In this document: piece by piece, positions 3,987-35,568 of the stretch
How the letters are laid out: every line of letters begins with the position of its first letter
How positions within the stretch are numbered: position 1 is the first letter of the stretch
NCBI GenBank assembly: GCA_024427105.1
Contig: JAKSVR010000004.1
Span: forward strand, 1-36,660
Source: Mycoplasmoidaceae bacterium
Lineage (GTDB): Bacteria; Bacillota_I; Bacilli_A; Mycoplasmatales; Mycoplasmoidaceae
DNA: 36,660 nucleotides
Direction: 5' to 3'
Program-made: the position numbers and the translations under genes
Notes under the pieces: model-generated
Databases searched by the model: none
What the model was told of the DNA's origin: nothing
The model's input: only the letters and a program-made list of their open reading frames with translations

Positions 3987-4012
3987 AAAAAAAGAGTTTT
4001 AACTCTTTTTTT
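3987..4012 (-). terminator. Terminator of the amino-acid permease gene at 4011-5696
   Basis: A 12-bp stem (3987-3998 with 4001-4012) with a 2-base loop; the A and T runs make it work in either direction. It overlaps the permease stop codon (4011-4013) and ends only 23 bases before the ATG of the EzrA-like gene on the same strand. Confidence 0.7.
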
Positions 4013-5696
4013 AATTTCTTTTAACGGATCGTTGAGCAATTTTTTTGTCCATTTTTGCTATCATCGCTGCTTTCTTTTCTTTATACATTTCAATGCTACT
4101 TGGAATGCAACTAACAAGAACAAAGACAATTAGCATGACTAAAGTCATGATTGCTCCAAGCATGTCTTTATTTCAGTCAGCTCTGGTATAACCACTTTCA
4201 TATCCTGGAATAATTTGGTTAATATCTTTTGCTCATTTAGCAACAATAATAACATCAGCAATTGAAGCAATAACAATAAACAAACATGCAACACTTATAA
4301 CGATTGTTGAGACTATAGAACAGAATCAGAAGCCTTTAGCTTTTCTTACTTTAACTACGTTAGTCTTTCTGTTTTTCATTGCACCAATAGTTGCAAAGAC
4401 AACACATAGGAAGGCAATAATTGATGTTCAATTAGCCATTAAATCACAGAATGAATATAGTCCATTACATGGGCCATTTGCAGCAATATCATAACCGGTA
4501 TGATCAGCAGCAACGTTTGACATATTAACCATTACTGTTGTCGAATAACCAATAGTGTCTGGGTAAGCTAATGCACCAATCAATGTAAATAAAACAAAGA
4601 ATACAAGAGTGATAACACCGGCATATATTAAACCAACTCAATTATGTTTTTGTGTTTGAATTTTAGCCTTCAAATGTTTAGCAAATGGTAAACCATTTTC
4701 TTTAATTAAATCTTGGTAATACAATGGGTTGTAAATTGCAAAACCATTGATAATTCCTAAAATACCAATAGCAATTAAGATTTGAATTACACCAATTACT
4801 CAGTGATAACCGTTTTCATTAAATCATGCTAGAGCATTAACCCTACCTAAATTTCCAACATCTGAATTACTTGTACCAAATAATAATGAAACAGCAATTA
4901 ACAAGTTAATAACTGAAACAATTACTAAACCAATAACTAATGCAGCTGGTGTTTTCTTTGGTTCTTTCATTTCTGATTGAATACCTGCAGCAGAATAGAA
5001 ACCATCATAACTGAAGATAATTGCTGGAACTGAACCAATTATTCCAAGCACGGGAACCATTTGTGCTAAACGCACATGGGCACTAGGATCAGGTTTAATT
5101 GGGTCTAATGGTGGAATAGTTGAATAACCTAATGCTGCTAATGTAATACCAGCAATTACACAAAATGCTAATGGAATAAACTTAACTGCTGTTACGACTC
5201 AGTTTTGAATATTACCTAACTTACTTGATAAACCACTAGCAATAAAGAATCATGCCGTAATTGCAAATGCAATTAATGCCGATACTCACCATTGCGTTTG
5301 CCAACCAAAAGCATCTTGGAATTGGATAACAACATAATATGGCATCAAGAAAAAGTTTAAAGGCAAATATAGAAACGCCATAAAGTATTTGGAAACTTTA
5401 TACAAATACTTATGACAAAAGTTTTTAACTCATGAGATAATTCCTAAGTTACTATCAGTTGTTGCACTAGCAATTTCTGCTAGAGAAACACCCATACAAA
5501 TAACGCCAAAGATTGATAAAACTCATGAAACAAGTGCAAGGATTCAACTATATCCAACATTTCCTAACACTTCACCATTTTTAAGGAAGATACCAGCTCC
5601 AATTGAGGAACCAATAACCAAAAAAATGGCAGAGACGAAACTAATTTTCTTTTTCGTGACTTCGCTCTTGGTCACTTTTTTCTTTAACTTTGACAT
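4011..5696 (-). CDS. APC-superfamily amino acid permease (permease D)
   Basis: Integral membrane transporter of 561 residues with about 12 hydrophobic segments. The first helix has the APC signature GSSIGAGIFLKNGEVLG, and PAIIFSYDGFYSAAGIQSEM matches the helix 6 region with its following loop. It uses many TGA codons as Trp, so it fragments under the standard code. Substrate cannot be told. It is transcribed alone: a terminator precedes it, its own terminator overlaps the stop, and a TATAAT box lies nine bases before the ATG. It is related to, but clearly more distant than, the three tandem permeases at 30575-35568. Confidence 0.85.
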
Positions 5697-11611: not shown

Positions 11612-12169
11612 ATGCAGATTTACAATAAAACTCAAATTAATGAAATTGCTTTGGCTTTAAAAGATGGTAAGGCTGCTATTTTGCCGACCGACACGGTGTG
11701 AGGAATAGTGAGTCTTAACGAACTAAGAATCTATCAAATTAAAAAACGACCCCTAACAAAGAAGTTATGCAAATTTGTCGACTCTGTCGATGCAATAGGC
11801 CTACCTTCTTTTTTAGCAGATGCCATTAGACCATTTATGGAAGGACCATTAACTGTCGTTTGAAAAGGTGTTAGTTATCGTGTACCTCATTGCTCATATT
11901 TAATTGATTTGATCCATCTTACAGGACCGCTTTATCAATCATCAGCAAATATTTCTGGACGCCAACCAATCATTATGTCACAGCAAGCTGCTGTGGAATT
12001 TCGTGACTCTTTAAATTATTTAATCATTGTTGATAACTCACCATGAGAACAAGCAGCAAATATGCCTTCAACTGTTGTTGATCTTGATCAAATGGTTGTT
12101 GTCCGCGATGGGCCAGTTGATGGCCATGCAGTATTGGCAGCAATTAATGCATTAAAGGAGCAAAAATAA
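11612..12169 (+). CDS. tsaC: Threonylcarbamoyl-AMP synthase (TsaC/YrdC family)
   Basis: Makes threonylcarbamoyl-AMP from Thr, bicarbonate and ATP for the t6A37 modification of ANN-decoding tRNAs. It has 185 residues, a stand-alone TsaC length without the Sua5 extension. Family motifs: ILPTDTVWG near the start (Trp is TGA), KKRPLTKKL, GPLTVVW (Trp is TGA), GPLYQSSANISG and MPSTVVDL. It is the first gene of a long plus-strand run; its stop overlaps the next ATG (TAATG), so it is coupled to the nucleoside-binding protein gene, an odd pairing. No ribosome site is visible at its own start. Confidence 0.9.
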
Positions 12170-14985
12170 TGAAATTCAAGTCATTCATGAACGCACACAG
12201 TGCGTTAGTTAAAGACGTTGTAATCAGCACGTGTCTAGTTGGTGCAACCGCTGGAATTGTTTTTGGCATTTCAGCTGGAACATTCAAAATTAACTATATG
12301 GATTTAACTGATTCACAAGCTAGATTAGCGGCTTTTAATAATCCCGCTAACAACTATACTGCGGAAAAAGTTTATTCAGCATGAAACATGAAAGAAACAA
12401 AAACCGATGCTGGAATTATTGATGCTGCTCCTGCTCCAACTGATCGTGATGTAACAAATGAATATTGAAAATCATTACATGGTGATGCTCCAAGATTAGA
12501 TGTTAATGAAGAAGCAATGAAAGTTGATGATCAACACCCTTTTGGTGTTGCGTTAGATCCAACTACTGATGCTCAAGCAATAATAAACCGTTATAACTAC
12601 ACTGCAATGATTCTTGATGGTTCAACGCATACAAATCTTGATCGTTCCTTCAACCAATCACTTTATAGTGGTTTAATTGATTTTAATCGTAATTACTCTG
12701 TACCATATGTTAATTCCGATAAGGAAGAAGACCCAACTAAGAACTTTGTTGCTCACTCATACCGTCCTGCGCAAGACAACACTACTGAATTTATCAATAT
12801 CTATTTATCAACTTTTGACCGACACTATGTTTTAGGTTTAGCTGGTTTTAACCATGCAACACCATTAAATGCATTAATGACCCACAAGCCTTCATCAACT
12901 CCTGGTCATTTTGAAGCCGTTGCTTCACATGCTAATGCTACAACCAACAAAATGTTAAATGGACGGGGAATGATTTTAATTGATTCCAACGTTGCTAATA
13001 ACCAATGTGTTAGTTCAGCAGAATTTAGAGCTGACCAAGGTGCTTTCTTAAGTGCTTTATCAACTTGTATGTATTTCTATCACAACCTTGATATATACCA
13101 TAACAAATACCAAAATTTATCAGTTGGTATTATGGGTGGTGTACAAATCCCAACTGTAAATATTTATCTTGGTGGTTTCCAACGTGGTGTTGAATTGTTC
13201 AATTCAATTGTTTTAACAAACATTGTCAATGATGGTGCACAAGTAGCCTTTAATCTTGTACCAGAAAAAGCTGATGATCAATATTTCCAATCTTGCTACA
13301 ACACTTTCATGACATTATTAGATCATAGTCGTTATGGTGATGAAATTAAACCATTATTAGGTGATGAATCTAATTGAACTACATATGAAGAACAATATAT
13401 GAACCAATTGCATGATGAATACCAAATTCGTTTAATCAAGCTTGGTAATATTGCTACACACTTCACTGGTTCATTTGCTGCTGGTGATGCTATTGGTATG
13501 ACTAAACAATTCTTGAACCGTGGTGCTCAAGCTTTGCTTGTTGTTGGTGGTCCACAATCAGTTGATGCTGCTCAAGAAATTAAAAATCAAAACTCTAATT
13601 GTATCTTAATTGGTGTTGACACATCAATGGAAGATAGTGACTATCAAAGATTACATGCTGGTTGTACAACTGGTGAATATAACAAAGACGATCCATGACA
13701 CGACCGTTCTGTTGGAGCTGATGGTTCTCGTTCTGCTCAAGCTAATTCAATTATTAAATTTTCAGCTTTAAAAGATATTCGTAATACTACTCAAAGTATG
13801 ACACAATTAATTGCGTCAGGAAAGCATTGAGATATTACATCTCCAGCTTGAAAACATCAATATGATCCAGATTATAGAATTGATCCTGATCATCCAGATA
13901 AAGTTTTTATTGTTGATCTTGCTGATGATGATGTTATTACTAAAAAACCTCTTGCTGATGATCCAACATCATGAATAATTGAAAAGTTCAATGCTACTGC
14001 AGCAGGTCAAAAAGGATTCACTAATGATACAGAATCATTAATTATTCCAACATCTTGGGTTGATCAAGATGGTAATGTTAATAATGTCGTTGATATTAAA
14101 CCAAGTGATGAAATGAAAGCTGCTGGCGATTGTGTATTTGATGAACTAAAACATGTTAAAAATATTGCTTTTGAATATGATGGTGCAATTAATGAACCAA
14201 ATTTACACATTTCAGCTAATGCTTTTAAAGGAAATACTACTCATGGTGAGCTTCCTACAACAATTGTTAGATGCATTGACCTTTCAAAATTAACAAACTT
14301 AGAAAAATTCTCTGCAGATATTGGCGCATTTGTTGATTTCCAACGACCAAAAAATGATGGTGGTGTATTATGCCTTTTAAAACGTGGTATTGCTGCTCAT
14401 GATAAAGATAATTTTGCCGATCAACTTGGTAATGCTGGATTAAAAGATTGATATTTCTTAGGTCCAGATATGGAAAAGAGTATCTGTAGTATTGGTTTCC
14501 AAACTTGTGGTAATATTCAAAATGGAATGGTTTCCATTTCATGAGATGGTTTCCCACAATTAATTGATGCATTATCACACATTCAATATAATTTTGACAT
14601 TAGTCAACCACCAATTAATTTAGCTCAAGCATGAAAGACAAGTGTTAAAGAATACTTCGACACATTATCACAAGCTGCCAAAGCAGTTATTCCTCTTGAC
14701 TACTATAATCCTGCTACACAAACAGGTGAAGTTGTTGAACTTGATAATTTAAAATCATATAAACGAGCTAAACAAAATGGTGATCCAACACTTTTATATA
14801 GTCAATATAAAACAACAATCGGTATTTTAGGTTCATTGCTTAATAGAGCATTATTGGAATTTGATGGAAGAACAACAATTTATTACGATGAAGTCAATAA
14901 TAAATTCATCACTATTCCAGATGATCGTTATGTCACTATTTCAATCTTGCAATGACTAGAATGAAATATGTATGTTATTGGATAA
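12169..14985 (+). CDS. Oversized BMP-family nucleoside-binding protein
   Basis: 938 residues, more than twice the usual BMP (PnrA-like) substrate-binding protein. Residues about 120-510 carry the BMP landmarks: DRSFNQSLYSGLIDF, SVGIMGGVQIPTVN then YLGGFQRGVELF, and GAQALLVVGGPQSVDAAQEI then CILIGVDTSMED. The remaining ~430 C-terminal residues match nothing I recognise. The N terminus has a hydrophobic segment (about 17-37), but the only Cys there (C22, preceded by IST) is a poor lipobox, so an uncleaved membrane anchor is possible. It is followed by a GGAGG site and the ABC ATPase gene. The likely role is capture of nucleosides outside the cell for the downstream transporter. Many TGA-Trp codons. 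Confidence 0.8.
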
Positions 14986-14996
14986 GGAGGTAGATA

Positions 14997-16592
14997 ATGA
15001 AACTAAAAGATAAAACTACCACCTTAAGAAAAGGTAAATATGCAATTTCCATGAAGAATGTTACCAAAACATTTTTAGGTGGAAAGATCATTGCTAATAG
15101 CAATGTTAATATTGATGTTAAATGAAATGAAATTCATGCCATCTGTGGTGAAAACGGTGCTGGTAAATCAACATTAATGTCAATCTTATTTGGTTTATAC
15201 AAACAAGATTCTGGTGAAATATATGTTGCTGGACAAAAAGTTGAATTTAAAAATGCTATGCAAGCAAATGCTGCTGGTTTAGGAATGGTCCACCAACACT
15301 TTAAGTTGGTTTTAGCATTTAACTTATTACAAAATATTATGCTTGGTGCCGAAACAACTAAGCATGGTTTTTTGGATGAACAAGCATCAATTACTAAAAT
15401 CAATAAGATTTGTAATGAATATGGTTTTAAGATAAACTTAAAACAAAAAACATCTGAAGCATCAGTTGGAACACAACAAAAAGTTGAAATTATTAAACTA
15501 TTGTTCCGTGGTGCAGAAATATTAATCTTTGATGAACCAACTGCCGTTTTATCTGATGATGAAATTGCTGGTTTTTTAGAAATGCTTCGTACCTTAAAGA
15601 AACAAGGTAAAACCATTATTTTAATTTCACATAAACTAAATGAAGTTCTTGATGTTGCTGACACAATTACTGTTTTACGTAAAGGTGTAACTATTGGTAC
15701 ATATCCACGTAAATCAGTTGATACTGCTAAATTAGTTGAATTAATCGTTGGACGTAAAATGGTTGAAAACCCAAATAATTTGAGTTTTGAAAATAAGTTG
15801 TCACCAATCATTAAGATTGAGCATTTAAAGATGCACAAACAAAATGATAAAGACTTACCAGCAATTTATGATTTATCATTAAATATTAATTCTGGTGAAA
15901 TTGTTGGTATTGCGGGAATTGAAGGTAATGGCCAATCAGAGCTTGCTTTAGCATTAGCTGGTATCCAACATCCAGATGGTGGAAAGATAACCTTCTATGT
16001 TTCTGGTCTTGATACAGACATTACCAAAGAATCACCAAAGATTATTTCGCGTTTAGGTTTAAGTCATGTTCCTGAAGACCGACATAAATATGGTTGCATC
16101 TTGGATGAGACTGTTGCTTTCAACTTAGTTTGCAACCAAGTTCATCGGGAAATGTTTAGCCGTTTTGGTTTCTTAAAATTAAGAGAAATTAACAACAATG
16201 CTAATAACTTATGTACTAAGTTTAATATCTTGGGTGCAAATAAAGGAAAGGCAAAGTTCCGTTCTTTATCTGGTGGTAACCAACAAAAAGTAGTTGTTGC
16301 TCGTGAATTATCAAAACCACATTCAGTGATTGTCATGGTTCAACCAACACGTGGTTTAGACGTTGGAGCAATTAACAGTATTCACGAATACATATTAAAA
16401 GAAGCTAAAAAAGGTCGAGCGGTTATCCTTATTAGTTATGAATTAGATGAAATCTTAAAGATTGCATCACGTGTGGTTGTAATGGACCATGGTGCAATTG
16501 TTTATGATGGTCTAAAGACTGACACTGATCGTCAAACAATTGGTAAGTTCCTAATGCGAACGGAACAAGCTGATATGAAAGGAGGTAACTAA
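14997..16592 (+). CDS. Nucleoside ABC transporter ATP-binding protein (two ABC domains)
   Basis: 531 residues with two tandem ATPase domains, as in the RbsA/NupO group. First domain: Walker A GENGAGKST, signature SVGTQQKVEI, Walker B ILIFDEPTAVLSDDE. Second domain: a degenerate Walker A, GIEGNGQSEL, signature LSGGNQQKVVVAREL, and VMVQPTRGLDVGA, in which the catalytic Glu is replaced. That asymmetry is normal for this family. AAGGAGG ends about six bases before the ATG and overlaps the end of the upstream gene. Its TAA overlaps the permease 1 ATG. It energises uptake with the permeases at 16592 and 22058. Confidence 0.93.
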
Positions 16593-18937
16593 TGCAAACA
16601 TCTCTTTTCAAAGAAAAGCTTAGTCATCATTGACAAAAGATTGTTCATTCTGATGTTCGTCAATCAATGACTAAAAAAATTGTTGCCACGATAGTAGCAA
16701 TTACCATTGCTTTCTTTTTAGCATTGATAATTGCTTGCTCAGTGTGTGATGCATGACCAAAATTTGGTGATGTAATTAAAACTATCTTCACCTCTGGTTA
16801 TCAAGAACAATTCCATAATACATTATTTAGCAATATGACGATATTAATCGTCGGTGGATTATCATTTGTTTTTGCTTATAAAGCTGGATTATTTAATATT
16901 GGTATCTCTGGACAAATGATTATGGGTGGAACCGTTGGAACCATTATTTGCCATTTATGCAAGATTCCAGCTGGAGCTAACCAATTTGTTGTCATTATTG
17001 CAAGTATGATAGCCGGAGCATTTATTGCCGGAATCATTGGTGCATTAAAAGCTTACTTAAGAGTCCATGAAGTAGTTTCATCAATTATGTTTAACTGAAT
17101 TATCTACTTCATGTCAGTTTTGACTTTAGCTAATTTACCAATCCCCCATGATGCATCTAATCTTAACACTGATGCACCAGCTGATGCATTATTGTTAAGA
17201 ATGAATGGTGAAAGTTTTATTCCTTTAATAATCATTACAGGAATTGTCATTATCATAATGGTGGTAATTCTTAATTATTCTGTATTTGGTCGAAAATTAA
17301 GAGTAACAGGTTTAAGTAATACTGGAGCATTAGCATCTGGTTACAATATTAAGGCAAATATGATTGCCTCAATGGCAATTTCTGGTTTACTAGCTGGATT
17401 ACTAGGAGCAATGTTATATTGTGGATTTGCTCCAAATATGCCAGTTACTGCTGCTGCAAAAGCTATTCCACAAGAAGGATTTAATGGTATTTCAGTTGGA
17501 TTAATTTCAATGTGCAATCCAATTGCAACTGTTCCTGTTTCATTATTCTTCTCAATGGTTAAGACATCAGTTAGTGATTTACAAATGCTTGGTATTGATA
17601 ACCATATTTCTGATATCGTCTTTGGTATTATTGTTTATGGCGCAGCAGCAATTGCTCTATTCTTAAACCTTAAACCATATTGATTAACTTTAGAAATCAT
17701 TCGTGGGAAAAACTACAGTCGAATTAAGCATGAAAAAAATATGACAAGCATTGAACTTTTAAGTTTGTCTGGTGATCAGTGTTCAACACTAAAAAAATAC
17801 TATGTTTTCTATAAAAAACATGGTAAAGTTAAATCATCATTACGTTATCCTCTTATTGCTCGGATCAAGATGATTTGAGCAAATATCTGTTATGGATTTG
17901 TCACTGTTCATGCTAACTGCCGTGTACGACAAAACAAACGAAAAGATATCATCACATTAGAAAAATTCTATCGCCAAGAAATGGCACACTTTGTTGTGAA
18001 AAAAGGTCAATTAATCATTGACAAAGAACAAAAATATCACGGTGGATGATGATTAAAATTAGATGATGAAAGAGTTAATTCTCCTAAGACAAAATCAATT
18101 TTATCAGCTAACTGTGGTGTAAATTTTGCTCCAGGATTATTTAATACATTAAAGGAAATGAACTCATATTTAAAAGCTCATCCATTTAATAATCGTGAAA
18201 TACGTTTAGTAAGTAAATTAGCTTACTTGCAAAACATTCGTAGTGGTTTAAGTTACCGAATTGGTATTACTAAACAAAACAAATTAACTTACTTCACTTT
18301 CATGCAAACAAAAAAACAAGTCCAAGAAATTGGTTTGGATGAAATTCATTCACGCAAACAATTTAATCTTGCTCATAGTGCTTACTTCCGTGCATATCAC
18401 AAAACATTGCAAGCAGTAAACAAACACTATGAACAAATGTTCAAAACATTTACACGTAAACAACCATTAAATACAATTGGAATTCGATTTGATTCAACAA
18501 CATTGGCAAATCTATACTTACGTAATTTAAAAGAAGAAGTATCACAAATTGCTCATTTGATTAATAGTCCATTATCAAAAACACAATTGGAAGAAGTAAC
18601 ACAATTAGTTGCAAAGATCAATAAAGCAAAAATGAATATTGCTGATAATCAACGACAAATTGATAAAATTCAATCAGAAATGAAGCACTTTGATAAAAAT
18701 AATATTAATTATCAAAAAAATATTAAAAGTGACATAAATAAATCTAAAATATATAATAATAATATAATTAATGAAAGAAAGTATATAACTAAGCTTCAAT
18801 CAAAGATAAATACAATGGTTTCTAACGCACGCAGTGTGGAAGAAACATACGAAACACAAAAATGACTAGCGCGTAAAAATGCAAATGAAAAAGCGCGCAA
18901 GAAATTAGAAAAGATTGCAGCTAGGAAAGGTATATAA
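16592..18937 (+). CDS. Nucleoside ABC transporter permease 1 with a long C-terminal tail
   Basis: 781 residues. Residues 1-364 are the membrane domain, with about nine hydrophobic segments and the BPD_transp_2-type sequence AYKAGLFNIGISGQMIMGG plus HEVVSSIMFNWIIY. The typical family length is about 350, so residues 365-781 are extra. The tail starts with a basic stretch and a possible small globular part (about 365-500, including YHGGWWLKLDDERVN), then becomes charged, Lys/Gln/Asn-rich helix (about 570-781) with coiled-coil character. From memory, M. genitalium's homologue is also longer than usual, though less so. Start ATG overlaps the ATPase stop. The rod gene begins two bases after its stop, out of frame. 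Many TGA-Trp codons. Confidence 0.88.
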
Positions 18938-18939
18938 AA

Positions 18940-21900
18940 ATGACAGACGAAAAAAAGCGAAGACTTAGACGAGCAAAAGCCGACATTCTTGACTATGAAG
19001 AAGAGGCTAAGAATAAAAACAAAAAGGTTGATGAAGATAGAAAACGTGAAATCTTAATCAGTCGTGCACTACAAGCTAGTGCATATGCTCATGCCATTGA
19101 TGCAGAACGTGATGCTGAATTCTATGCTCAACATCAAGCTGAAAAAGCAAAACGTGCTGAACAAATGAAAAAACAACAACGTTTGAATGCTATCAAGCGT
19201 GCTATTGCCGAACAAAAAGAAAGAGAACGTCGTGCTGCTGAAAAAGCAAAGCGTGAAACGGCTGCACTAAAAGCTGAAGCAAAGAAACAAGCTGAAAAAG
19301 AAGCTAAAGCTAGAAAAGCTGCGCAAATCGAAATGATGGCGCAACAAAAAGAAGCACGTAAACGTGCTAGAGCTAAAGCTCGTGAAATTAAAAAAGAAAA
19401 TAGAGCTGTTTTAATTGAACAAAAAATTCAAGCTCGTGAAGCTGCTCACCCAGAATGAGCTGCTCGTGCTCGTAGTAAAGCTGCAAAAGTTGCTGCTAAG
19501 ACTCGTGCTAAACACCAAGCTATGGAAGAAAAGATGCAGATAATGCGTCAAAAAGCTGCAAGAAGAGCAGCTCGAACGCGTTCTGCAAATGCTCGTAGAG
19601 AAGAAAATTGAAGACAAAGAGCTACTAAAACTAAAGCCAAGATTGATGCTCGTAAAGAGAAAGAAGACGAAGCCCGAGCGGCAAAAGCCGCTCGAATTCG
19701 TGAAGCTAAACTTCGTCAAAGAAAAGCCGAAGAAAGAAGAGAAGAAATTCGTCGTCGTAGAGCTGCAATAAGGGCTGCTAGAACAAGAGAAGCTAATGCT
19801 CGTAAAGCAGCAGCTAGAGCTGCTAAAGCAAGAGCTGAAAGGGAAGCTATTGCAGAAAAAAGACGTGAAGCCGCAAGAAGAGCTGCTGCTGAAAGAAGAG
19901 CTGCTATCGAACGTGCAAAACGTGAAGCACAAGAACGTCGTGAAGCTGCTTTAAGAGCTGAACAAGAAAGAAAAGAAGCTGCAGCAAGAGCTGCTGCTCA
20001 ACGTCGTGCTGAAGCTAAAGCTGCTGCTGAAAGAAGATCAGAAGCTGCAAGAAGAGCTGCTGCAAAGCGTCGTGCTGAAGAAGAACGTGCTGCTGCTGAA
20101 CGTGCAAAAGCTGCTGCTAAGCGTCGTGCTGAAGAAAAACGTGCTGCTGAAAAACGTGCAAAAGCTGCTGCAAAGCGTCGTGCTGCTGCAAAACGTGCTG
20201 AAGAAAAACATCAAGCTGAACTAGCACGTGCTGCTGCTAAGCGCCGTGCTGAAGAGAAACGTGCTGCTGCTAAACGTGCAAAAGCTGCTGCTAAACGTCG
20301 TGCTGCTGCAAAACGTGCAGAAGAAAAACATAAAGCTGAACTAGCACATGCTGCTGCTAAGCGTCGTGCTGCCGCAAAACGTGCAGAAGAAAAACATCAA
20401 GCCGAACTAGCACATGCTGCTGCGGTAAAAAAAGCTGCTGCTGAACGTGCTGCTGCAAAACGTTCAAGAGCTGCTCAAAAAGCCGCTAGAACACGTGAAC
20501 TTAATGAACGTAGACAAGAAAGAATTCGTGAGGCTGCAGCTAGAAAAGCTGCAAAAACACGTGCTCGTGCTGCTTGAAATGAAGCTCATACACTTGAAGC
20601 TAGACAAGCTCGTGCTAAACAACGTAAATTAGAAAGAGAAGAAGCAAGAACAAAGAATGCTGCATTTAAGAAGCAACGTGAACAACTTTGAATCAAGCTA
20701 CAAAGAGAAAAAGAAGAAAAACGTCGTATTGCCATAATCAATAAGGCTAAGGCTAAACAACTTGCTGATGAGCAAAAAGCAGCAGATGCTGAAAAACAAT
20801 CTAAGTTTAAAATTCGACGTGAACGAGCAAAAAATGCTGCTTATGCTTTAAAACTTGCAAGACAACGCGAACAAGCTAAGATTGATGCAGAAAGAGCTGC
20901 AAGAAGAGCTGAAGAAAAAGAACAAGCTCGTTTAGCAAAAGAACGTCAACGTTTACGTGACGAACAAGCAAAACAACATCGTCTTGAAGAACAAGCTAAG
21001 ATTGATGCTAAGATTGCTCAAACTAAATCAAAACGTGCTGAAGCTAAAGAACAACGTCGTGCTGCTAGAGCAAAAGCTCGAGCAGAAAAACTTGCCTTTA
21101 GACAACAACGTGCTCAATTGAAATTTAAATTAAAACAACAACAAGAAGCTCAACGCCGTGCTGATGAAATGAATCAAGCTAAAGCTGATCAAGTTGCTGC
21201 AAGACGTGAAGTTCTTGAAGCGCAACGTGATTCACGTCGTGAAGTACGTAAAGAACAAGAACGTAATATTGCCTTTGCATTAAAGATTGAACAAGAACGT
21301 AAAGAAGAACAATTACGTGCTCTAAGAGAACATCGTCGTGAAAAAGCTCGTATTCAATTAGAACGTGCTAAAGAAGAAGAACGAATCATCAAAGAAAAGG
21401 CTGATCGTACAAACGATATTGAACAAGCTAAAGTTGATGAACAAAAAGCAGAAGCTAAAGCAAGACGTGCTGAAGCACGAGAACAAAAACGTGCTGCAAA
21501 AGCAAAAGCTAAAGCTGAAAAATTAGCTATTAAGATGCAACGTGAACAATTACGTATTCGTCTACAAAAAGAAAAAGACGAACAACGTCATTCTGAAGAA
21601 ATTGCTCAAGCAAAAGCTGACAAGATTGCTGCTGAAAAATCAATTATTGAAGCACAAAATGATTCTCAATTAGAAATTAATAAAGAATTAGAAAAGAACA
21701 AACAATTAGCTCAAGAACTTGCAAGACAACAAGGTGTTGAACAAGTTAAAGCTGAAGTTGATGTTAAAATTGCTGAAGCTAACGAAGATTCTCGTTTAGC
21801 TCTTGAAAAAGATCGTATTCGTAAAGAAAAAGCAAAAGAATTCCGAATTGAACAACAAGCAAAAGTTCAAGCACACCGTGCTCAAGCTAGAGCAATGCGT

Positions 21901-22056
21901 GCTGAAGCTAAAGAACAACGTCGTGCTGAACGTGCTAAAGCTAAAGCTGCTAAGGCTGAAGCTAAAGCTGCAAGAAAAGCAGCAAAACGTGCTGCTAAAG
22001 AAGCAAAACAAGCACAAAAGAAAAACGCAGAAGTGGCTGATACACTAGGATTGTAA
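18940..22056 (+). CDS. Giant Ala/Arg/Lys/Glu-rich helical rod protein, function unknown
   Basis: 1038 residues with almost no Gly or Pro (one PE near residue 171) and little hydrophobic sequence beyond Ala; no signal peptide or membrane segment. The composition resembles TolA domain II and single-alpha-helix proteins. Residues 1-365 are irregular charged helix; about 365-505 is very Ala-rich with short repeats (AAAKRRAEEKRAAxKRAK); from 555 to the end there are three 144-residue repeats and a partial fourth (starts at 555, 699, 843 and 987). The tail AEVADTLGL differs. A few TGA-Trp codons sustain the frame, so it is translated in the local code. AGGAAAGG lies about nine bases before the ATG. 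It sits between permease 1 and permease 2 genes. No homologue is recognised; a cytoplasmic scaffold or cytoskeletal rod is an inference. Confidence 0.85.
20041..20450 (+). repeat. Short Ala/Lys/Arg-rich repeats in the rod gene
   Basis: The unit encoding RAEEKHxAELAxAAAKRRA recurs, with GAACTAGCA-type landmarks at 20218, 20338 and 20404, that is 120 bp (40 residues) and then 66 bp (22 residues) apart. Several 30-50 bp stretches are near-identical, so slippage or recombination could alter length without breaking the frame. Confidence 0.75.
20602..22056 (+). repeat. 432-bp (144-residue) tandem repeat in the rod gene
   Basis: Anchor sequence CGTGCTGAAGC begins at 21034, 21466 and 21898, exactly 432 bp apart; a diverged unit begins at 20602. 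Proteins align without gaps: FKKQREQLWIKLQ, FRQQRAQLKFKLK and IKMQREQLRIRLQ occupy the same place in units 1-3, as do NAAYALKLARQ (unit 1) and NIAFALKIEQE (unit 2). The fourth unit is cut short at the stop. Confidence 0.85.
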
Positions 22057-22057
22057 T

Positions 22058-22990
22058 ATGGGCGATTTAGGAACCTTATTAGATTTAACTTTCCTATTTA
22101 CCGCAATATTGCTAGCAGGTGCCCTATCGGGGTATTTATCAGAACGTGCAGGGATTGTTAACCTAGGAATTGATGGAATGATGTGTGTTGGTGCCTTATT
22201 CTTTGGCATCTTCTCATCAACCGCATTTTGAGGTGGCACTCCACACTTTGCAACAATCATTGTTGCTTTATTATTAACCATGATTTGTACAATGATCATG
22301 GGAGCGATGCATGCATTTGTGTGCATTCATTTACGGGCTGATCATACCATTGCTGGTACAGCAATCAATTTAGTCGGTTTAGCTCTTGCAACATTTTTAA
22401 ACCCAACATTGGCTCACCGTTTATACCCTGGTCAATCTTATTCCAGCATTATGTGTCAATATAATTCATGCTTGCCAATTGGTAACTCATTATTTGGTAG
22501 CAGCATAATTATTTTCTTTGCTGTATTGGCGATTGCTATTGCAATCTTTGTTGTAGTTAACAAAACCAAAATTGGTTTAAGATTTAGAGCGGTTGGTGAA
22601 AACCCTAATGCTGTCGATGCCCAAGGTATCTCTGTATTTAAATACCAATGAATTGCGGTATTGCTTTCATCAGCAATGGCCGGACTTGCTGGTGGTATCT
22701 TCCTATTTAATGTGAAGATGTTTAACGGAACAGTACAATCAATGGGATATTTATCATTAGCTATCCTTATTACTGGTGGATGAAGAGTACCAAAGATTGC
22801 GGTCTTTGCTTTAGTCTTTGCAATGTTTAATGCTGCAGCAAACACTACAACATTAACTCAATTAGGCATTCCGCAATTAGTAGTGTTCTCTATTCCATAT
22901 CTAATTACATTAATAATATTATTATTCTCTGGGCGAAAGAATCTCGCCCCGGCCCACTCGGGAATACCGTTTGAAAAAGGAATGAGGTAA
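22058..22990 (+). CDS. Nucleoside ABC transporter permease 2
   Basis: 310 residues, normal for the second permease of NupQ/YufQ-type systems. It is hydrophobic throughout with about nine segments. Family landmarks: SGYLSERAGIVNLGIDGMM near the start, HLRADHTIAGTAINL, and KTKIGLRFRAVGENPNAVDAQGI, the cytoplasmic coupling loop. Its ATG lies one base after the rod-gene stop, so translation of the two is likely coupled. It should pair with permease 1 although 3.1 kb of rod gene separates them. upp follows after three bases. Confidence 0.92.
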
Positions 22991-22993
22991 ATT

Positions 22994-23611
22994 ATGAAAC
23001 ATGTAAAACATCCAGTTATTAACTATCAATTAACATTAATGCGTGATAAAAACGCTAACAGTCAATTATTCCGTAGTTGTTTAAGAACTGTTTCTTATTA
23101 TTTAGCGGTCCAAGCCACTAGTGATTTAAAAGAAAAAGATATTCCAATTGAAACACCAATTTGTAAAATGGTTGGTAAGAAACTAGCTGATAAGGTTGTC
23201 TTAGTACCAATCTTAAGAGCTGGTCTTGGTATGGTTGATGCATTTAGAGAAATGATCCCTAATGCACGAATCGGTCACATTGGTTTATATCGTGATGAAG
23301 TAACGCACCGACCAGTGCATTACTATTGTAAGATGCCAACTACAATTAAAGGTGGAACTGTAATCTTACTAGATCCAATGTTAGCTACTGGTCACTCTGC
23401 TGGTGACGCAGTTGATATGATTAAAAAATTTAAACCAAAACGTATTATCTTTGTATCAATTGTTAGTTGCCCTGAAGGAATTAAATATTTTGAGAAACAA
23501 CATCCAGATGTTAAATGCTATACAGCAGCCATTGATAAAAAATTAAATAAAGACAAATATATCGTTCCTGGTCTAGGTGATGCTGGAGATCGAATCTTCG
23601 GAACAAAATAA
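22994..23611 (+). CDS. upp: Uracil phosphoribosyltransferase
   Basis: Converts uracil and PRPP to UMP in pyrimidine salvage. 205 residues, full length. The PRPP-binding loop reads VILLDPMLATGHSA; VPILRAGLGMVDAF and VSIVSCPEGIKYF are family hallmarks, and the C-terminal PGLGDAGDRIFGTK is conserved. GAGG before the ATG overlaps the permease 2 stop region. It is the last gene of the nucleoside-uptake operon, joining import with salvage. A strong terminator follows immediately. Confidence 0.97.
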   Translation: MKHVKHPVINYQLTLMRDKNANSQLFRSCLRTVSYYLAVQATSDLKEKDIPIETPICKMVGKKLADKVVLVPILRAGLGMVDAFREMIPNARIGHIGLYRDEVTHRPVHYYCKMPTTIKGGTVILLDPMLATGHSAGDAVDMIKKFKPKRIIFVSIVSCPEGIKYFEKQHPDVKCYTAAIDKKLNKDKYIVPGLGDAGDRIFGTK

Positions 23612-23633
23612 AAGAGGAAAGCCTCTTTTTTTT
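23611..23633 (+). terminator. Terminator after upp
   Basis: A 7-bp stem (23611-23617 with 23622-23628), GC-rich at the loop side, with a 4-base loop and a T run. It abuts the upp stop and ends the nucleoside operon. Confidence 0.85.
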
Positions 23634-23655
23634 ATTTAAATATTTAATTTACATA

Positions 23656-23690
23656 TATAATAAATAAACCATATTTTAATTTTTATGGTT
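23656..23690 (+). promoter_or_regulatory. Promoter and leader hairpin of rplU-prp-rpmA
   Basis: TATAAT at 23656-23661 is followed by a 7-bp hairpin, AACCATA (23667-23673) with TATGGTT (23684-23690), starting about where the transcript would begin. The leader then runs about 57 bases to AAAGGA and the rplU ATG. The position is that of the L21 leader known in Firmicutes, an autoregulatory site, but I cannot confirm it as that family. Confidence 0.45.
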
Positions 23691-23747
23691 ACAACCGCAC
23701 TAAATAAGATTAAGTTCTGAATAGGGAGTCATGAAAGGATATAAATT

Positions 23748-24047
23748 ATGTTTGCAATATTTCAAACAGGTGGCAAACAATATAAGGTTTCATTAAAAGA
23801 TGAAATCTATGTTGAAAAACTTGAAGCAAAAGCAAAAGATAGTATTACTTTTGATCAAGTTTTAATGATTGATAGCAAAATTGGTAAACCTTATTTAGCT
23901 GGAGCAAAAGTTGTTTGTGAAGTTTTAAAACAAGGTAAAGCACCAAAAATTGTTAATATTAAACACCTTCCCCAAAAACACCACACTCACAAGACAGGTC
24001 ATCGACAACCATATACAAAATTGGTAGTTAAAGAAATAATTGGTTAA
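23748..24047 (+). CDS. rplU: 50S ribosomal protein L21
   Basis: 99 residues. MFAIFQTGGKQYKVSLKDEIYVEKL is the typical L21 start, and the C-terminal rRNA-binding part has HKTGHRQPYTKLVV. AAAGGA lies eight bases before the ATG. The stop overlaps the start of prp (TAATG), and rpmA follows, the standard L21-Prp-L27 arrangement. Confidence 0.96.
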   Translation: MFAIFQTGGKQYKVSLKDEIYVEKLEAKAKDSITFDQVLMIDSKIGKPYLAGAKVVCEVLKQGKAPKIVNIKHLPQKHHTHKTGHRQPYTKLVVKEIIG

Positions 24048-24894: not shown

Positions 24895-25365
24895 ATGACT
24901 AACTATGAAATTATGTTAGTTGTTGATGGCAATAAATCAGCTGCAGATGCTGATGCTGTTTCAACTAACTGCCAAAAACTTTTAAAAGGTACTAAGGATC
25001 TTAAAGAAGAAAAATTAGGCCTTAAGAAAATGGCATATAAGATTAACGGATGTTCACAAGCATACTACTATGTGTTAAATTTTGCTTGTGACAAACCTGA
25101 AATCATTCGTGAATTTAACCGATTAACATTGATTAACAAAGATGTGTTAAGATTTTTAATTATGAATCTAGAACACAACTATGGTTATCGTGCAATTCAC
25201 AACGAAAAGAAGGTAGCTCGTAGTCAAAAGAAAGCAAAGATCTTTGCTGATAAGCAAAAGAAATTTGAAGAACTTATGGCTGCTAAGAAAGCTGCTGCAG
25301 CCGCTGAACTAGAAGCAAAAGCTGAAGCTAGAGCTGCAAAAGAGAAAGAAGCAAAAGATGAATAA
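24895..25365 (+). CDS. rpsF: 30S ribosomal protein S6 with charged C-terminal extension
   Basis: 156 residues against about 95-135 usual. Residues 1-100 are S6: MTNYEIMLVVDGN, LKKMAYKINGCSQAYYYVLNF, and RFLIMNLEHNYGYRA. The extra ~55 residues are Lys/Ala/Glu-rich helix (KKAAAAAELEAKAEARAAK), in style like the rod protein. AAGGAGA precedes the ATG. Its end overlaps the ssb start by eight bases. First gene of rpsF-ssb-orf99-rpsR-rplI-dnaB-lipoprotein. Confidence 0.95.
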   Translation: MTNYEIMLVVDGNKSAADADAVSTNCQKLLKGTKDLKEEKLGLKKMAYKINGCSQAYYYVLNFACDKPEIIREFNRLTLINKDVLRFLIMNLEHNYGYRAIHNEKKVARSQKKAKIFADKQKKFEELMAAKKAAAAAELEAKAEARAAKEKEAKDE

Positions 25366-25824: not shown

Positions 25825-26124
25825 ATGGCTATTGATAGACAGGAAGCTTCGCTAAAAGAAAGATTGTTAGAAAAAATGAACAAGCAAGTTGCTGAACTGC
25901 AATACAAGATCGCTTGTGCACAAGAAAGACATGCTAAGAAGCAACTTAAGAAAGAATTTAAAGCTCTTAAGAAAGAACGTGCTGATGTAATCAGACAAGT
26001 TAGAGCGATTAGAAAATACAATCAAGCAGATCTTGGTTCAAGAATCAAAACAATAGCAAATAATGGTATGAAAATTGCCGAAGCAAAATCAACAAAAAAA
26101 GTAAAAGAATTAGAAGGTAAATAA
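25825..26124 (+). CDS. Small charged helical protein between ssb and rpsR, unknown
   Basis: 99 residues, starting two bases after the ssb stop and ending two bases before rpsR, so clearly part of the operon. It is almost all predicted helix, rich in Lys, Glu, Ala and Arg ([41 protein letters not shown]), with net positive charge and no membrane segment. No family recognised. rpsF-ssb-rpsR are usually adjacent, so this is an insertion. It may bind nucleic acid or the ribosome, but nothing shows this directly. Confidence 0.75.
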
Positions 26125-30574: not shown

Positions 30575-32200
30575 ATGCCAAAAGTAAATCGTCAAACAGC
30601 AGGAAAAGTTGGTCTATTTAGTGCTATTATGATAATCTTTAGCACTTTAATAGGTATTGGAATTTTCTTTAAAAACTTTTCAGTATTTAATAACAATCAT
30701 GGCAACCCATGAGGTATTCTTATTTCATGAATAATTGCTATTATCCTTGTAATGTGTTCAGCCTTGTCCTTCTGTGAAATAAGTTCTTGCAAGACGAAAT
30801 TTAAAGGTGAAGGACTTGGTGGTTGAGCACAAAGATTCTGTGGTCATAAGTTTGGTCGATATTCTAAAGTTGGCTATACATTATTCTTTTATGCCCTAGA
30901 TACTTTTGTAGTAATGTTTTTTACTGGTGAAGCATTATTAAACTGCTTTGCTAATTTAGGTGGTGGAGCTGGACATGTTGATTTTGGTAAAGCAACAGTC
31001 TTCTATATTTTCTTAATTGGTGCAGCAATATATGCTATTTTTGCAATTGTCAATGTTGTTGCCAACAATGCAATGACAAAATTTAGTGATGCAGTTGGTA
31101 TTATTAAATTCCTACCAATTATTGCAGTCGTTGTCCTTGGTATAACATTTGGTTCATTAAATAATGGTGGATTATGAAATGGTGAATGATTTAAACACAC
31201 ATCCGAGCAATATCATTCAACGCCTGATCTGGTCGGTATCATTATTTCATTACCATCAATTCTATTTATTTATGAAGGATATTTAATCATCGGTAATATC
31301 GCTGGGGATATGAAAAATCCTGAAAGGAATGTTCCATTAGCTGTAGTTATAGCAATCATTATTGCTGCTTGTCTATATGTCTTAATCACTGTTGGTTGTA
31401 TCACTGCTGGAACTGGTAATGTTTATGAATTAATGGAATTCTGTTTTGGTGAAGGAACAGTATTAACTAATGTTTTCACAAACATTATGTCTGTCTTTAT
31501 CTTTATTTCAGTATTGGGTGTTTTGAATGCAATGGTCTTTAGTGGAATGAGAGCATTCCAAAACAATTGTGAACGGGGAGAATTATTTAAATCAAGACAA
31601 TTGCTTAAATTAAAACCAAGTAATAATTTATTTGCTGGAGCGGTTAGTTTATCAATCGTCATTTGTTTTTGATGAACAATGATGATCGTGCCATCTTGTA
31701 TTCTTAATACCGATCGGATTATCGATGGAATGTCCAATATGATGATCTTAGCAATCTATGTTGTTTATGCGGTATTACTATGTTGTGGTTTAAATAATCG
31801 TAGAACAAATAAAGTAGAAGTTAGAAAAATCAAAGGTTTTAAAGTCTTTTGTTCAATAGCTATTATCACATGTTTCTTTATGATTTCATTCTGCTCAGTA
31901 TACCAATTCATAATCAATCCAATTATTGGGGCAAGCAAAAATGGTTGAAATAGTGTCTATACTGATTGCGGTTGGGGACTATTTATCAATTGTAAATCTT
32001 CTTTAGTTCCATGACCAACCGATGAGAATGGATTCTTGCTTGGCTTTAACTATTGACAATCAATGCTAATATATTGAATTCTATTAGGTTTTACAATGGT
32101 TTGCCCACTAATTAATGATTTAATGATCAAATGATGGGATAAGTCAAATCACCAATGTTTGATCTGACAAAAACCTAAAAACGATATCGTTTTAATATAA
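30575..32200 (+). CDS. APC-superfamily amino acid permease A
   Basis: 541 residues with about 12 hydrophobic segments. Helix 1 has the APC-type STLIGIGIFFKNFSVF. Shared landmarks with permeases B and C: a start of MPK followed by QTAxK, FxGEALLN, IIKFLPI, FIYEGYLIIGNIAGDM, and TAGTGNVYEL. These three form one paralogue family; substrate unknown. Many tryptophans are TGA. Its 3' end is followed by a 68-base AT-rich gap without a strong terminator, then permease B. Confidence 0.88.
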
Positions 32201-32227
32201 AATAATAAAATTTATCTCTTATTTTTT

Positions 32228-32233
32228 TATAAT
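32228..32233 (+). promoter_or_regulatory. -10 box of permease B
   Basis: TATAAT, 35 bases before the permease B ATG, following a T run (32222-32228). AAAGGA near 32257-32262 is the ribosome site. Confidence 0.4.
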
Positions 32234-32268
32234 ATAAATAATTGATTATTATATGAAAGGAAAATTAC

Positions 32269-33933
32269 ATGCCTAAAGTTACGAAACAAACCGCAAGTAA
32301 GATTGGATTGTTTAGTGCGATCATGGTGATTTTTGGTGCTGTAGTAGGTATCGGTATTTTCTTCAAAAACTATTCAGTTTTTCGAGCAAATAACGGTAAC
32401 TGAATCGGTGTATTAATATCCTGAGTTATTGCCATAATTATGGTATTGTGTATTGCTATTTCCTATGGGGAAATTGTCACCTGCAAGACTAAAAACAAAT
32501 CTGAAGGTCTAGGTGGATGAGCAACACGATTCAATGGCCACCATTGAGGTCGCTTTACTAAGCTAATGTATACACAAGTATACTATCCAGTATTAACTTT
32601 TGCGATCTTATTCTTTACTGGTGAAGCTGCCCTAAACATTTTCGGTAGTCCAGGAATTATAGATGCTTTTGGTAAACCAACAACTCTATACATCTTCCTA
32701 ATTGGTGGTGGATTGTTTGCCATTTTCATCATTCTTAACTATTTTGCGTCTAGAGGTATGACCTACTTCAGCAACGTTACTGGTATTATCAAGTTCTTAC
32801 CATTAGCTGCTGTATGCATTCTAGGTATTATCTTTGGAATATTAAAAGGTAATAATGGTCTATGAAATGGTCAATGATGAGGACAATGAGTTGAAGGAAG
32901 CTCTGAATTCTCTTGAAAAGATTCTGGTTCATTAGATGTCGTTGGAATCATTTCATGTATTCCAGCAATTCTATTTGCCTTTGAAGGTTACCTTGTTATT
33001 GGTAACGTTGCTGGAGATATGGAAAATCCTGAAAAGAACGTTTCATTATCAATTGTTCTAGCAATTGTTATTATTTCAATTCTTAACCTTGGTATTACAA
33101 TTGGTTGCATGACTGCTGGAACTGGTAATGTTTACCATTTAATGGCGCTAGTGAGCATGGGTAATAGTGAACTTGCCCATATTCTTAATATTGTCATGTC
33201 AGTATTTATCTTCATCTGCATTATTGGTGTGTTAAATGCTATGGCCTTCTCAGGAATGCGTGCATTCCAAGTATCATGCCAAGACAACACACTATTCAAA
33301 GGTAAAGCATTAGCTGACAAGAAACCTGGTACATTATATGCTGGAGCAATCTACTTCAGTGTTATGATCCTAATTTGGTGAATAGGCATTGGTGTCCCAT
33401 CAGTATTGCTAAATACTGATGCAATTGCTGATGCAAGTAGTTTAATCCTAGTTGTGATGACATACTTACTATATGGTTCAGTATTACTAGGTGGATTTGT
33501 AAACCGATTCACACGAAATGTTAAAGTCCGTAAGGTTGGTGTATTCCCAGTTACTGCCTTTATTGGAATCCTAGCATGTTTCTTTGTATTTGCCTTTAGT
33601 GGTGTTTACGAAAACATTGTTGATCCAATATTACATCCACATTCTATTAACCCTAATAACTGAGGTCTATTTGTTCAAGACAATGATGGATTACCATTAC
33701 CTAACTGATTAAATACAACATTCTCAGATAGTCATGGATTCACTCGTGAAGGTTTCCAATGAGAAAACTGAACTGAATGTATTGTCTTCTGAGCTATTTC
33801 AGCAGTAATGGTTCTTATCCCATTCATTAATGATGGACTAATTCACAAGGGAGACTTGTTCAATACAACTTCATTAATTTGACAAACTCCACTTCCTGAA
33901 GAAATGATTATTGAAAAAAGGATATTGTATTAA
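32269..33933 (+). CDS. APC-superfamily amino acid permease B
   Basis: 554 residues, about 12 hydrophobic segments. Starts MPKVTKQTASKIGLFSAIM; GAVVGIGIFFKNYSVF in helix 1, LFAFEGYLVIGNVAGDMENP in the helix 6 region, and TAGTGNVYHL. Unlike its neighbours it has a clear ribosome site, AAAGGA, seven bases before the ATG. Trp-rich, largely TGA. The C-terminal loop before the last helix (GLFVQDNDGLPLPNWLN) differs from A and C, which could reflect different substrates. Confidence 0.88.
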
Positions 33934-33961
33934 TAATTAATATTAAAAGTTAAATATACTT

Positions 33962-33990
33962 TATAATAAGACTAACGTCTTATTTTTTTT
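33962..33990 (+). terminator. Terminator with embedded promoter between permeases B and C
   Basis: An 8-bp stem (33965-33972 with 33977-33984), a 4-base loop and a T run up to 33990, directly followed by the permease C ATG at 33991. TATAAT (33962-33967) overlaps the left arm, so the same bases serve as terminator for B and promoter for C. Confidence 0.6.
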
Positions 33991-35568
33991 ATGCCAAAAG
34001 TACAAAAACAAACAGCCGGAAAAATCGGAATGTTAAGTGCTATCATCATGTTATTTGGTGCCGTTGTAGGAATTGGCATATTTTTTAAGAATACAAATGT
34101 TTTTAAACTAAACAACTATAACTGAATCGGAGTTATTGGTTCATGAGGTTTTTCAGTTTTAATCATTATTTGTATGGCCTTATCATTTGCCGAGCTTTCA
34201 ACCTGCCAGATGGCAAATAAGAATGCTGGTTTTGGTGGTTGAGCAAAAGTCTTCTTCCCACATGGCTTTGGCAGATATTCAAAACTTGCTTATCCATTAA
34301 CTTTCTATTCAATGAATACATTTGCTGTTGTATTCTTCGCTGGTGAAGCAGTATTAAACTGCTTTGGTAATTTAGGAATTCATGGTTCAGCCATTGGTGG
34401 GTTTGATTTTGGTAGATTCTCAGCTTTATATGTTTTCATCATTGGCGGGGTAATTTATGGTTTGCTTTGTCTTGTTAACTATTTTGTAAGTAAAGCAATG
34501 TGTCGTTTCAGCGACATCATGGGTGCAATTAAGTTCTTACCAATGCTAATGGTTATCTTATTAGGTGTAATCTTTGGAATAATGAATGGTGGAGGTTTAT
34601 GAGCTGGTAAGGCATTTGACCCACCTTGAAAAGATGCTCCAATTGTTGGCAGTTTCTCTTTTGTTGGAATGATTCAAGCTGTTCCATGCATCTTATTTGC
34701 TTATGAGGGATATTTAGTTGTTGGTAATATTGCTGGAGAAATGGACAACCCAAATAAACAAGTGCCAATCGCCGTTGTTGTTGGTGTAGCAATTGTTTCT
34801 TTGTTATACCTTGGTATAACAATTGGTTGCGTTACTGCTGGAACTGGTAATGTTTATGAATTAATGTGAATTGTTGGGAATGAAAAGGTTGCCAAAATTT
34901 TAACTTATGTAATTTCAATCCTAATCTTTATTTGTTTATTAGGAACATTAAACTCATTGGTATTTACTGGAGCAAGAGGTTATCAAGCTGTTTGCGAAGA
35001 TGATACTTTATTCCTAGGAAAGAAACTTGCTAATGCTAAACCAGATAACCCATTATTTGCTGGAATAATTTGAATGGCACTTGCAGTTGGTTTCTGATGA
35101 GTTGTAACTGCGATCCCATCAGTTATATATAACACTGACACCATTCCTGATGCTGTGTCAACAGTAATGGTAGTGTTCCTATATATTATTTATGGTGCAA
35201 CAGTTTTAGCTGGTTTTGTTAACCGTTTCACAAAGAAACATACAACTAATTGATTCACTATTTTCCCATTTGCAGCTGTTATTGCAATACTAGGCTCATT
35301 GATTATTTTCTCAGTTTCTGGTGTTAACCAATTTATTGTTGAACCAGTTAAAACCATAATGAATGGTGGTTTATTTAAACCATATGACTGTGGTTGAGGT
35401 TTATTCTTAAAACCAGGCGGAGACCTTCAGTACTTGTCTTGCCTTGAAGTAATTGTTTGTTTCTGAGGAATGTTCTTAATTACTGCGATCATGCCGTTCA
35501 TTAATGACCTATTAATTAAATGCTTTGATCGTCAAAACACTCAACGTTTAATTTGGCAAGGTAAATAA
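33991..35568 (+). CDS. APC-superfamily amino acid permease C
   Basis: 525 residues, about 12 hydrophobic segments. MPKVQKQTAGKIGMLSAII, GAVVGIGIFFKNTNVF, LFAYEGYLVVGNIAGEMDNP and TAGTGNVYEL show it is a close paralogue of A and B. No ribosome-binding site; eight T residues precede the ATG. Its stop overlaps the ATG of the macro-domain gene (TAATG), so these two are translated together. Substrate unknown. Confidence 0.88.

What the first reader, a model, noticed from the sequence alone, without database searches (positions are those of the whole stretch)
18940..22056. A 1038-residue charged helical rod gene sits inside a nucleoside ABC transporter operon
Seen: an uninterrupted reading frame (UGA as Trp) made almost wholly of Ala, Arg, Lys, Glu and Gln, with almost no Gly/Pro and no membrane segment, flanked within 1-2 bases by permease 1 and permease 2 genes. 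Known: NupOPQ/PnrA-type operons normally have the two permease genes adjacent. Inferred: the rod, perhaps a single alpha-helix or coiled-coil fibre of order 100 nm or more if fully extended, is made with the transporter and may scaffold it or form a cytoskeletal element. I know no described system of this kind.
Basis: partly seen in the sequence, partly recalled or inferred. Interest (0 to 1): 0.85.

Follow-up and report, generated by a model that had tools for sequence, protein, structure and literature searches.

The report
Giant charged rod beside nucleoside importer
In an uncultured mycoplasma-like bacterium, a real gene for a very long, positively charged, probably helical protein sits between the two channel genes of a nucleoside importer, and one channel protein carries an extra domain of an RNA-binding type in its tail, so the importer may be tied to something inside the cell.

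Summary
Confirmed: window 18940-22056 is one open frame of 1038 codons, 79% A/R/K/E/Q, 2 Gly, 1 Pro, net +146, between permease 1 (ends 18937) and permease 2 (starts 22058). It behaves as a gene: coding-type base asymmetry, a C-terminal half of 3.5 ungapped 144-residue repeats, and a 102-residue gene of like composition in the same slot of Candidatus Hennigella equi. Elsewhere the permeases are adjacent (68 of 70 scored loci). Two related permease-1 proteins end in fused charged tails instead; similarity of tails and rod beyond composition is marginal.

The unexpected part is permease 1: its 400-residue extension holds a YlxR-type domain (hhalign 98.1%; only significant PDB sequence hit 1g2r). 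In both lineage genomes that could be read, ylxR is missing from its usual place between nusA and infB. Best reading: permease-1 tail plus rod form a polybasic cytoplasmic appendage of the importer, for tethering or clustering, possibly to nucleic acid. Against it, the YlxR-type domain has lost residues invariant in free YlxRs, and one relative lacks the rod. A scaffold is plausible; a cytoskeletal fibre is unproven; canonical single alpha-helix and heptad coiled coil are not supported. Function is inferred throughout.

The parts
11612..12169 (+). Sua5/YrdC-type gene at the head of the gene run
   Evidence: Pfam PF01300 E 1.8e-17
12169..14985 (+). PnrA/Bmp-like substrate-binding protein, 938 aa
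   Evidence: PF02608 E 2.9e-6
14997..16592 (+). double ABC ATPase of the importer
   Evidence: PF00005 E 6.9e-42, 2 stretches; 84% identical to the H. equi gene
16592..18937 (+). permease 1, 781 aa: membrane domain (about residues 1-375) plus ~400-residue extension
   Evidence: PF02653 residues 80-350 E 2.5e-36; AF2 mean pLDDT 83.6
17921..18190 (+). YlxR-type domain in the permease-1 extension (residues 444-533)
18572..18934 (+). terminal basic helical segment of permease 1 (residues 661-781, net +14)
   Evidence: AF2 helices 663-698 and 705-780; charge
18940..22056 (+). rod gene, 1038 aa, net +146, 79% A/R/K/E/Q
20053..20439 (+). rod residues 372-500: 18-, 22- and 40-residue tandem units
   Evidence: 40-mer copies 37/40 identical, dN 0.06, dS 0.23
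20560..20991 (+). 144-residue repeat, copy A (rod 541-684)
20992..21423 (+). 144-residue repeat, copy B (rod 685-828)
21424..21855 (+). 144-residue repeat, copy C (rod 829-972)
21856..22053 (+). 144-residue repeat, partial copy D (rod 973-1038)
   Evidence: shift 144/288 matches; 28 and 27 of 66 identical to B and C but only 13 of 66 to A
22058..22990 (+). permease 2, 310 aa
   Evidence: PF02653 E 5.7e-33; 86% identical to H. equi
22994..23611 (+). uracil phosphoribosyltransferase (upp), next in the run
   Evidence: TIGR01091 above cut-off

Best explanation
The rod is an accessory cytoplasmic protein of a PnrA/Nup-type nucleoside ABC importer in a Hennigella-like lineage of Mycoplasmoidaceae. 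It extends, as a separate gene or (in relatives) as a fused tail, the basic helical C-terminal tail of permease 1, whose extension also carries a captured YlxR-type domain. I propose that rod and permease-1 tail associate on the inner face of the membrane and act as a long polybasic tether that clusters importers and/or holds them to a polyanionic partner, most plausibly RNA or the nucleoid. Shown by calls: gene, composition, repeats, slot, fusion-like tails, YlxR-type domain, absence of ylxR from its usual place in two genomes. Inferred: cytoplasmic side, homology of rod and tails, physical association, binding to nucleic acid, purpose.
For: Same slot in H. equi, L001:12540-12848, 102 aa, net +27. 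P0009 and P0012: permease 1 runs on into charged tails, 342 and 135 residues counted from the LKKIA motif, net +62 and +23. All four tail/rod bearers fall in one clade of 14 permease-1 rows (support 91/98, drawn open), whose members end in basic segments (last 70 residues net +4 to +17). YlxR-type domain. ylxR not in its usual place: G017 nusA-infB adjacent, G001 nusA-lipoprotein-like ORF-infB, against G016 nusA-ylxR-infB (infB and ylxR named by NCBIfam or frame); in G001 the only PF04296 match at E <= 0.01 is the one inside permease 1. B. subtilis YlxR/RnpM binds RNase P RNA and, non-specifically, DNA (PMC11898665, abstract and introduction read). Selection on the rod: coding asymmetry; copies A-C with dN/dS 0.56-0.74 at near-saturated silent sites, pN 0.39-0.47 against 0.67 for shuffled partners.
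Against: Rod and tails are not demonstrably homologous: Smith-Waterman z against block shuffles at most 2.5 for rod pieces, 1.1 or less for the 102-aa protein against the rod. The phmmer search with the rod found nothing at E <= 1e-3 among the 7988 candidates scored. The permease-1 YlxR-type domain has replaced residues invariant in 9 mollicute YlxRs (Arg by His, Arg-Gly by Gly-Gly), so nucleic-acid binding may be lost; Pfam finds it in 13 of 35 permease-1 members even at E <= 10, and not in P0009 or P0012. G017 (same contig as L002), a relative whose permease 1 aligns over the YlxR-type region, has no rod and abutting permeases. dN/dS is 0.96-1.24 against partial copy D. The basic stripe is uneven by region. 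No charged fused tail was seen in the loci scored. Only one other rod-slot locus had DNA context.
Confidence: 0.4

Rival explanations
1. Cytoskeletal or length-setting fibre: the rod self-assembles into a helical filament or bundle under the membrane, as HMW2 does in Mycoplasma pneumoniae, and its operon position matters only for expression.
For: Length (up to 156 nm at 0.15 nm per residue), predicted helix (low confidence), in-register 144-residue repeats; HMW2 (1,818 aa, calculated 190 nm) acts as a length ruler of the attachment organelle (PMC8191905, passages); that M. pneumoniae belongs to the same family is recalled.
Against: No heptad or hydrophobic-core periodicity; few hydrophobics (123 of 1038 ILVMFYW); like-charge repulsion at +146; only 102 residues in H. 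equi and absent in L002/G017.
Confidence: 0.22
2. Weakly constrained expansion: a short basic helical tail gene grew by repeat duplication, with little function beyond not disturbing the operon.
For: Extreme length variation (102, 135, 342, 1038), tandem duplications, dN/dS 0.96-1.24 against copy D, absence in L002/G017.
Against: Frame intact over 1038 codons; Ala/Arg codons kept while third positions are AT-rich; copies A-C kept in register near silent-site saturation; cost of a 1038-residue protein in what is probably a small genome (G001 and G017 are listed at 600,000 bases).
Confidence: 0.2
3. Chromatin- or RNA-binding polycation of histone H1-like kind (compare Hc2, AlgP) that happens to be encoded in this operon and has no physical link to the importer.
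For: Net +146, Ala/Lys/Arg repeats, repeat-number growth as in Hc2 (PMC2848022, abstract).
Against: Same slot kept in H. equi and fused tails on permease 1 point to the importer; 176 acidic residues and only one Pro are unlike Lys/Ala/Pro histone-like tails as I recall them.
Confidence: 0.13
4. Misread or artefact: antisense or non-coding repeat, or assembly error.
For: Low complexity opens other frames too (539-aa antisense ORF).
Against: Start and stop lie 1-2 bases from both permeases with SD-like runs; a gene of like composition in the same slot of H. equi; the best antisense frame has 3 stops.
Confidence: 0.03

Closest known systems
PnrA/Nup-type nucleoside ABC importer (mycoplasma P48 locus)
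   Same: Gene set: Bmp-like binding protein, double ATPase, two permeases; same order in many Mollicute loci.
   Different: Extra rod gene between the permeases and a YlxR-type domain plus helical tail on permease 1. In M. agalactiae/M. bovis p48 is transcribed opposite to the ATPase and two permease genes (PMC12892991, passages).
YlxR (RnpM), PF04296
   Same: Residues 444-533 of permease 1 match the profile and the fold.
   Different: Inside a membrane permease, not a free ~90-aa protein; Arg and RG positions invariant in 9 mollicute YlxRs are changed.
HMW2 of Mycoplasma pneumoniae
   Same: Very long helical protein (PMC8191905, passages).
   Different: HMW2 is described there as having 11 predicted coiled-coil domains; the rod shows no heptad signal, is strongly basic and lies in an importer operon. 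No sequence comparison was made.
Histone H1-like repeat proteins (Hc2, AlgP)
   Same: Hc2 is lysine-rich and changes length by repeat duplication and deletion (PMC2848022 abstract); AlgP only from a search listing.
   Different: Far longer than Hc2 (165-237 aa), 17% acidic residues, predicted helical, beside a transporter.
Charged single alpha-helices and TolA domain II (both recalled)
   Same: Ala/Lys/Arg/Glu-rich helix.
   Different: E to K/R i+4 pairs not enriched over the whole rod; no Pfam or NCBIfam match to the rod.

Membership tests
PnrA/Nup-type nucleoside ABC importer | Bmp/PnrA-like binding protein, double ATPase and two BPD_transp_2 permeases in one run | tested here: met
   Pfam PF02608, PF00005 (2 stretches), PF02653 twice
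PnrA/Nup-type nucleoside ABC importer | permease genes adjacent (usual, not essential) | tested here: not met
   rod gene between them; 68 of 70 scored loci among L001-L080 have them adjacent
PnrA/Nup-type nucleoside ABC importer | transports nucleosides | not testable with these tools
   inferred from families and the neighbouring upp
YlxR (PF04296), for permease 1 residues 444-533 | whole-domain profile match | tested here: met
   hhalign 98.1% E 8.1e-14, 12 against 9 rows; 1g2r E 1.8e-5; the single-sequence Pfam score is below the curated cut-off, 15.8 vs 26.9
YlxR (PF04296), for permease 1 residues 444-533 | YlxR fold | tested here: met
YlxR (PF04296), for permease 1 residues 444-533 | residues invariant in 9 mollicute YlxRs (R-x-C, Arg, RG-x-Y) | tested here: not met
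   Arg to His, RG to GG; R-x-C only in some relatives
YlxR (PF04296), for permease 1 residues 444-533 | binds RNA (RNase P RNA) | not testable with these tools
   known for B. subtilis YlxR (PMC11898665)
Charged single alpha-helix (ER/K) | enriched E to K/R salt bridges at i+4 (recalled criterion) | tested here: not met
   48 seen, 54 expected, z -1.0 over the whole rod; residues 1-180 alone z 2.3
Heptad coiled coil | hydrophobic 3.5-residue periodicity | tested here: not met
   no dedicated coiled-coil predictor was available
Histone H1-like repeat protein | binds DNA or RNA | not testable with these tools
   charge only
TolA | family profile | tested here: not met
   no Pfam match at E <= 10 and no NCBIfam match at E <= 0.001 to the rod

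The most novel reading that the evidence does not exclude
A nucleoside importer that is physically coupled to RNA: permease 1 took over the YlxR (RnpM) domain when the free ylxR gene was lost, and a polybasic rod of up to 156 nm reaches from the importer into the cytoplasm to hold RNA, RNase P or the nucleoid at the membrane, so that uptake and RNA turnover of nucleosides meet in one place.
Probability: 0.17. Interest if true: 0.87.

Novelty: new variant of a known kind. Interest (0 to 1): 0.6.

Why it matters
Mollicutes depend on imported nucleosides. A transporter whose permease has absorbed a domain of an RNA-binding family, in genomes where the free gene is gone from its usual place, and that is made with a huge basic rod, would be a new way to organise import inside a minimal cell. 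It gives a direct test of whether nutrient uptake and RNA metabolism can be tied together physically, and shows a large low-complexity protein kept in an AT-rich genome against the base bias of its silent sites.

Tried and rejected
Rod by sequence search: phmmer on 5.8 billion proteins, none of the 7988 scored candidates at E <= 1e-3; 95 family genomes, one hit (E 6.6e-6) that I take for a wrong-frame reading of a tandem-repeat lipoprotein, L113; PDB sequences none at E <= 1; PHROGs none at E <= 1; Pfam none at E <= 10; phage records no megablast match for window 12000-24000; viral contigs, queried with permease 1, one distant permease only.

Homology of rod and fused tails: Smith-Waterman against 150 block shuffles for 21 pairs; best is P0009 tail with P0012 tail, 174 against a shuffle maximum of 170 (z 2.9); rod pieces z <= 2.5. 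Treated as not shown.

Longer permease-1/rod fusions: searched with P0009 (candidates up to 1.75 times its length); of 54 hits none is longer than 1099 aa. Of the 82 loci (of 111 examined) where both permeases were found, none has more than 55 A/K/R/E/Q in the last 100 residues of permease 1.

The open frame of 3831 codons at permease 1 of L027 is due to 9955 masked N. The power of 16 for a 3.60-residue K/R period in the C half is inflated by the repeats: per block against 200 shuffles, A 31, B 0, C 14, D 0 reach the observed maximum; residues 1-180 7, 181-370 104, 371-540 27; reported as a tendency only.

The permease-1 fold search tests the membrane part and the YlxR region; matches of the terminal helices to moesin and others are taken as common long helices. 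No Foldseek match reached E <= 0.001. The rod model (pLDDT 63.9) was not searched.

In print: YlxR+mycoplasma (9 papers, 8 listed), mycoplasma+nucleoside ABC transporter+permease (3 papers), single alpha-helix searches (2 and 9 papers). Apart from passages of PMC12892991 I saw listings only for these; no listed title names a YlxR-permease fusion or a rod. Not a proof of absence.

Full report
WHAT IS THERE. The frame at 18940-22056 is as described: 1038 codons by table 4, ending in TAA. It is 79% A/R/K/E/Q, with 2 Gly and 1 Pro, and 322 basic against 176 acidic residues, net +146. It follows permease 1 after 2 bases and precedes permease 2 by 1 base, each start with a purine-rich SD-like run (by eye); the same holds in H. 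equi. Code 4 is supported by the eight TGA codons in permease 1, whose frame is uninterrupted and aligns along its length with relatives.

IS IT MORE THAN CHANCE. Codon-position GC is 0.675/0.465/0.099. Of 16 window genes computed the rod has the lowest third-position and the highest first-position GC; the second position is only slightly above permease 2 (0.426). The protein is not uniform low complexity. Residues 372-500 are 18-, 22- and 40-residue tandem units. Residues 541-1038 are three and a half copies of a 144-residue repeat that align without insertion or deletion: over residues 501-1038 the mean BLOSUM62 score at shift 144 is 1.64 and at 288 1.48, against a mean of -0.01 and s.d. 0.19 over shifts 5-399. 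Copies A-C are 33-42% identical (48, 61 and 52 of 144) with dN/dS 0.56-0.74, while pS (0.50-0.62) is near the shuffled value of 0.52; comparisons with partial copy D give 0.96-1.24. So specific sequence, not just composition, has been kept, though not strictly.

SHAPE. AF2 from the single sequence gives six long helices, mean pLDDT 63.9: weak evidence. There is no 3.5-residue hydrophobic signal, so no ordinary heptad coiled coil, and no overall E to K/R i+4 enrichment, so no canonical ER/K helix; E to K/R i+3 and K/R to E i+4 are enriched (z 3.2 and 2.8). A 3.6-residue K/R tendency exists in parts. A fully extended helix would be 156 nm.

RELATIVES. Closest held genomes are Candidatus Hennigella equi (L001/G001) and a genome whose contig is titled RUG11194 (L002; G017 holds the same stretch). 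Hennigella is the name given to GTDB genus RUG11194, Mycoplasmoidaceae, found in diverse mammalian guts (PMC8957277, passages). That the window belongs to this lineage is inferred from permease similarity (59% and 47%). A search of 320 genomes of the order added no closer one. Of loci L001-L080, 70 gave both permeases and 68 have them adjacent. H. equi has a 102-aa Lys/Ala-rich ORF exactly between them, net +27. L002 has none. Among 67 permease-1 homologs in the protein collection, P0009 and P0012 continue into charged tails of 342 and 135 residues from the LKKIA motif. All four fall in a clade of 14 rows (91/98, open). Sequence similarity among rod and tails beyond composition is marginal, so the link rests on position, composition and fusion-like architecture. 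Only one rod-slot relative has DNA context; the contigs of the other close homologs could not be fetched.

MECHANISM. I commit to an importer appendage: permease-1 tail (YlxR-type domain, helices) plus rod, cytoplasmic, polybasic, acting as tether or cluster former, with nucleic acid the likeliest partner (0.4). Physical association, location and partner are inferred. Rivals are a cytoskeletal fibre (0.22), weakly constrained expansion (0.20), an unlinked histone-like polycation (0.13) and artefact (0.03).

NOVELTY. The importer is of a known kind. I know no described importer with a captured YlxR domain or a rod gene between its permeases, and the listings searched name none by title; this is limited to open papers and mostly to listings. 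I rate it a new variant of a known kind.

Noticed in passing
window 17921-18190 and loci L124, L125, L123: YlxR-type domain inside permease 1, with ylxR missing between nusA and infB in the two lineage genomes read (G001, G017) but present in G016. Possibly of more general interest than the rod.
   Followed up: yes
window 25825-26124: A 99-aa charged ORF (58% A/K/R/E/Q, net +14) without a Pfam match lies between ssb and rpsR; 1 of 95 family genomes gave a weak match (E 9.4e-4).
   Followed up: partly
window 24895-25365: Ribosomal protein S6 carries an Ala/Lys/Glu-rich C-terminal tail (47% A/K/R/E/Q over the protein).
   Followed up: no
window 30575-35568 and 4011-5696: Four amino-acid permease genes (PF13520), three of them in tandem, followed by a Macro-domain gene at 35568-36089.
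   Followed up: no
L113 1367-2182: In G076 a lipoprotein-like ORF holds 18 exact copies of an 11-residue repeat; several other frames of the array are open too.
   Followed up: no
L007, L017, L024, L038: Other Mollicutes also have long permease-1 ORFs (745-882 aa); in the A1 set of 25 only 6 members match YlxR at E <= 0.5, so other extensions may have been added to this permease elsewhere.
   Followed up: partly
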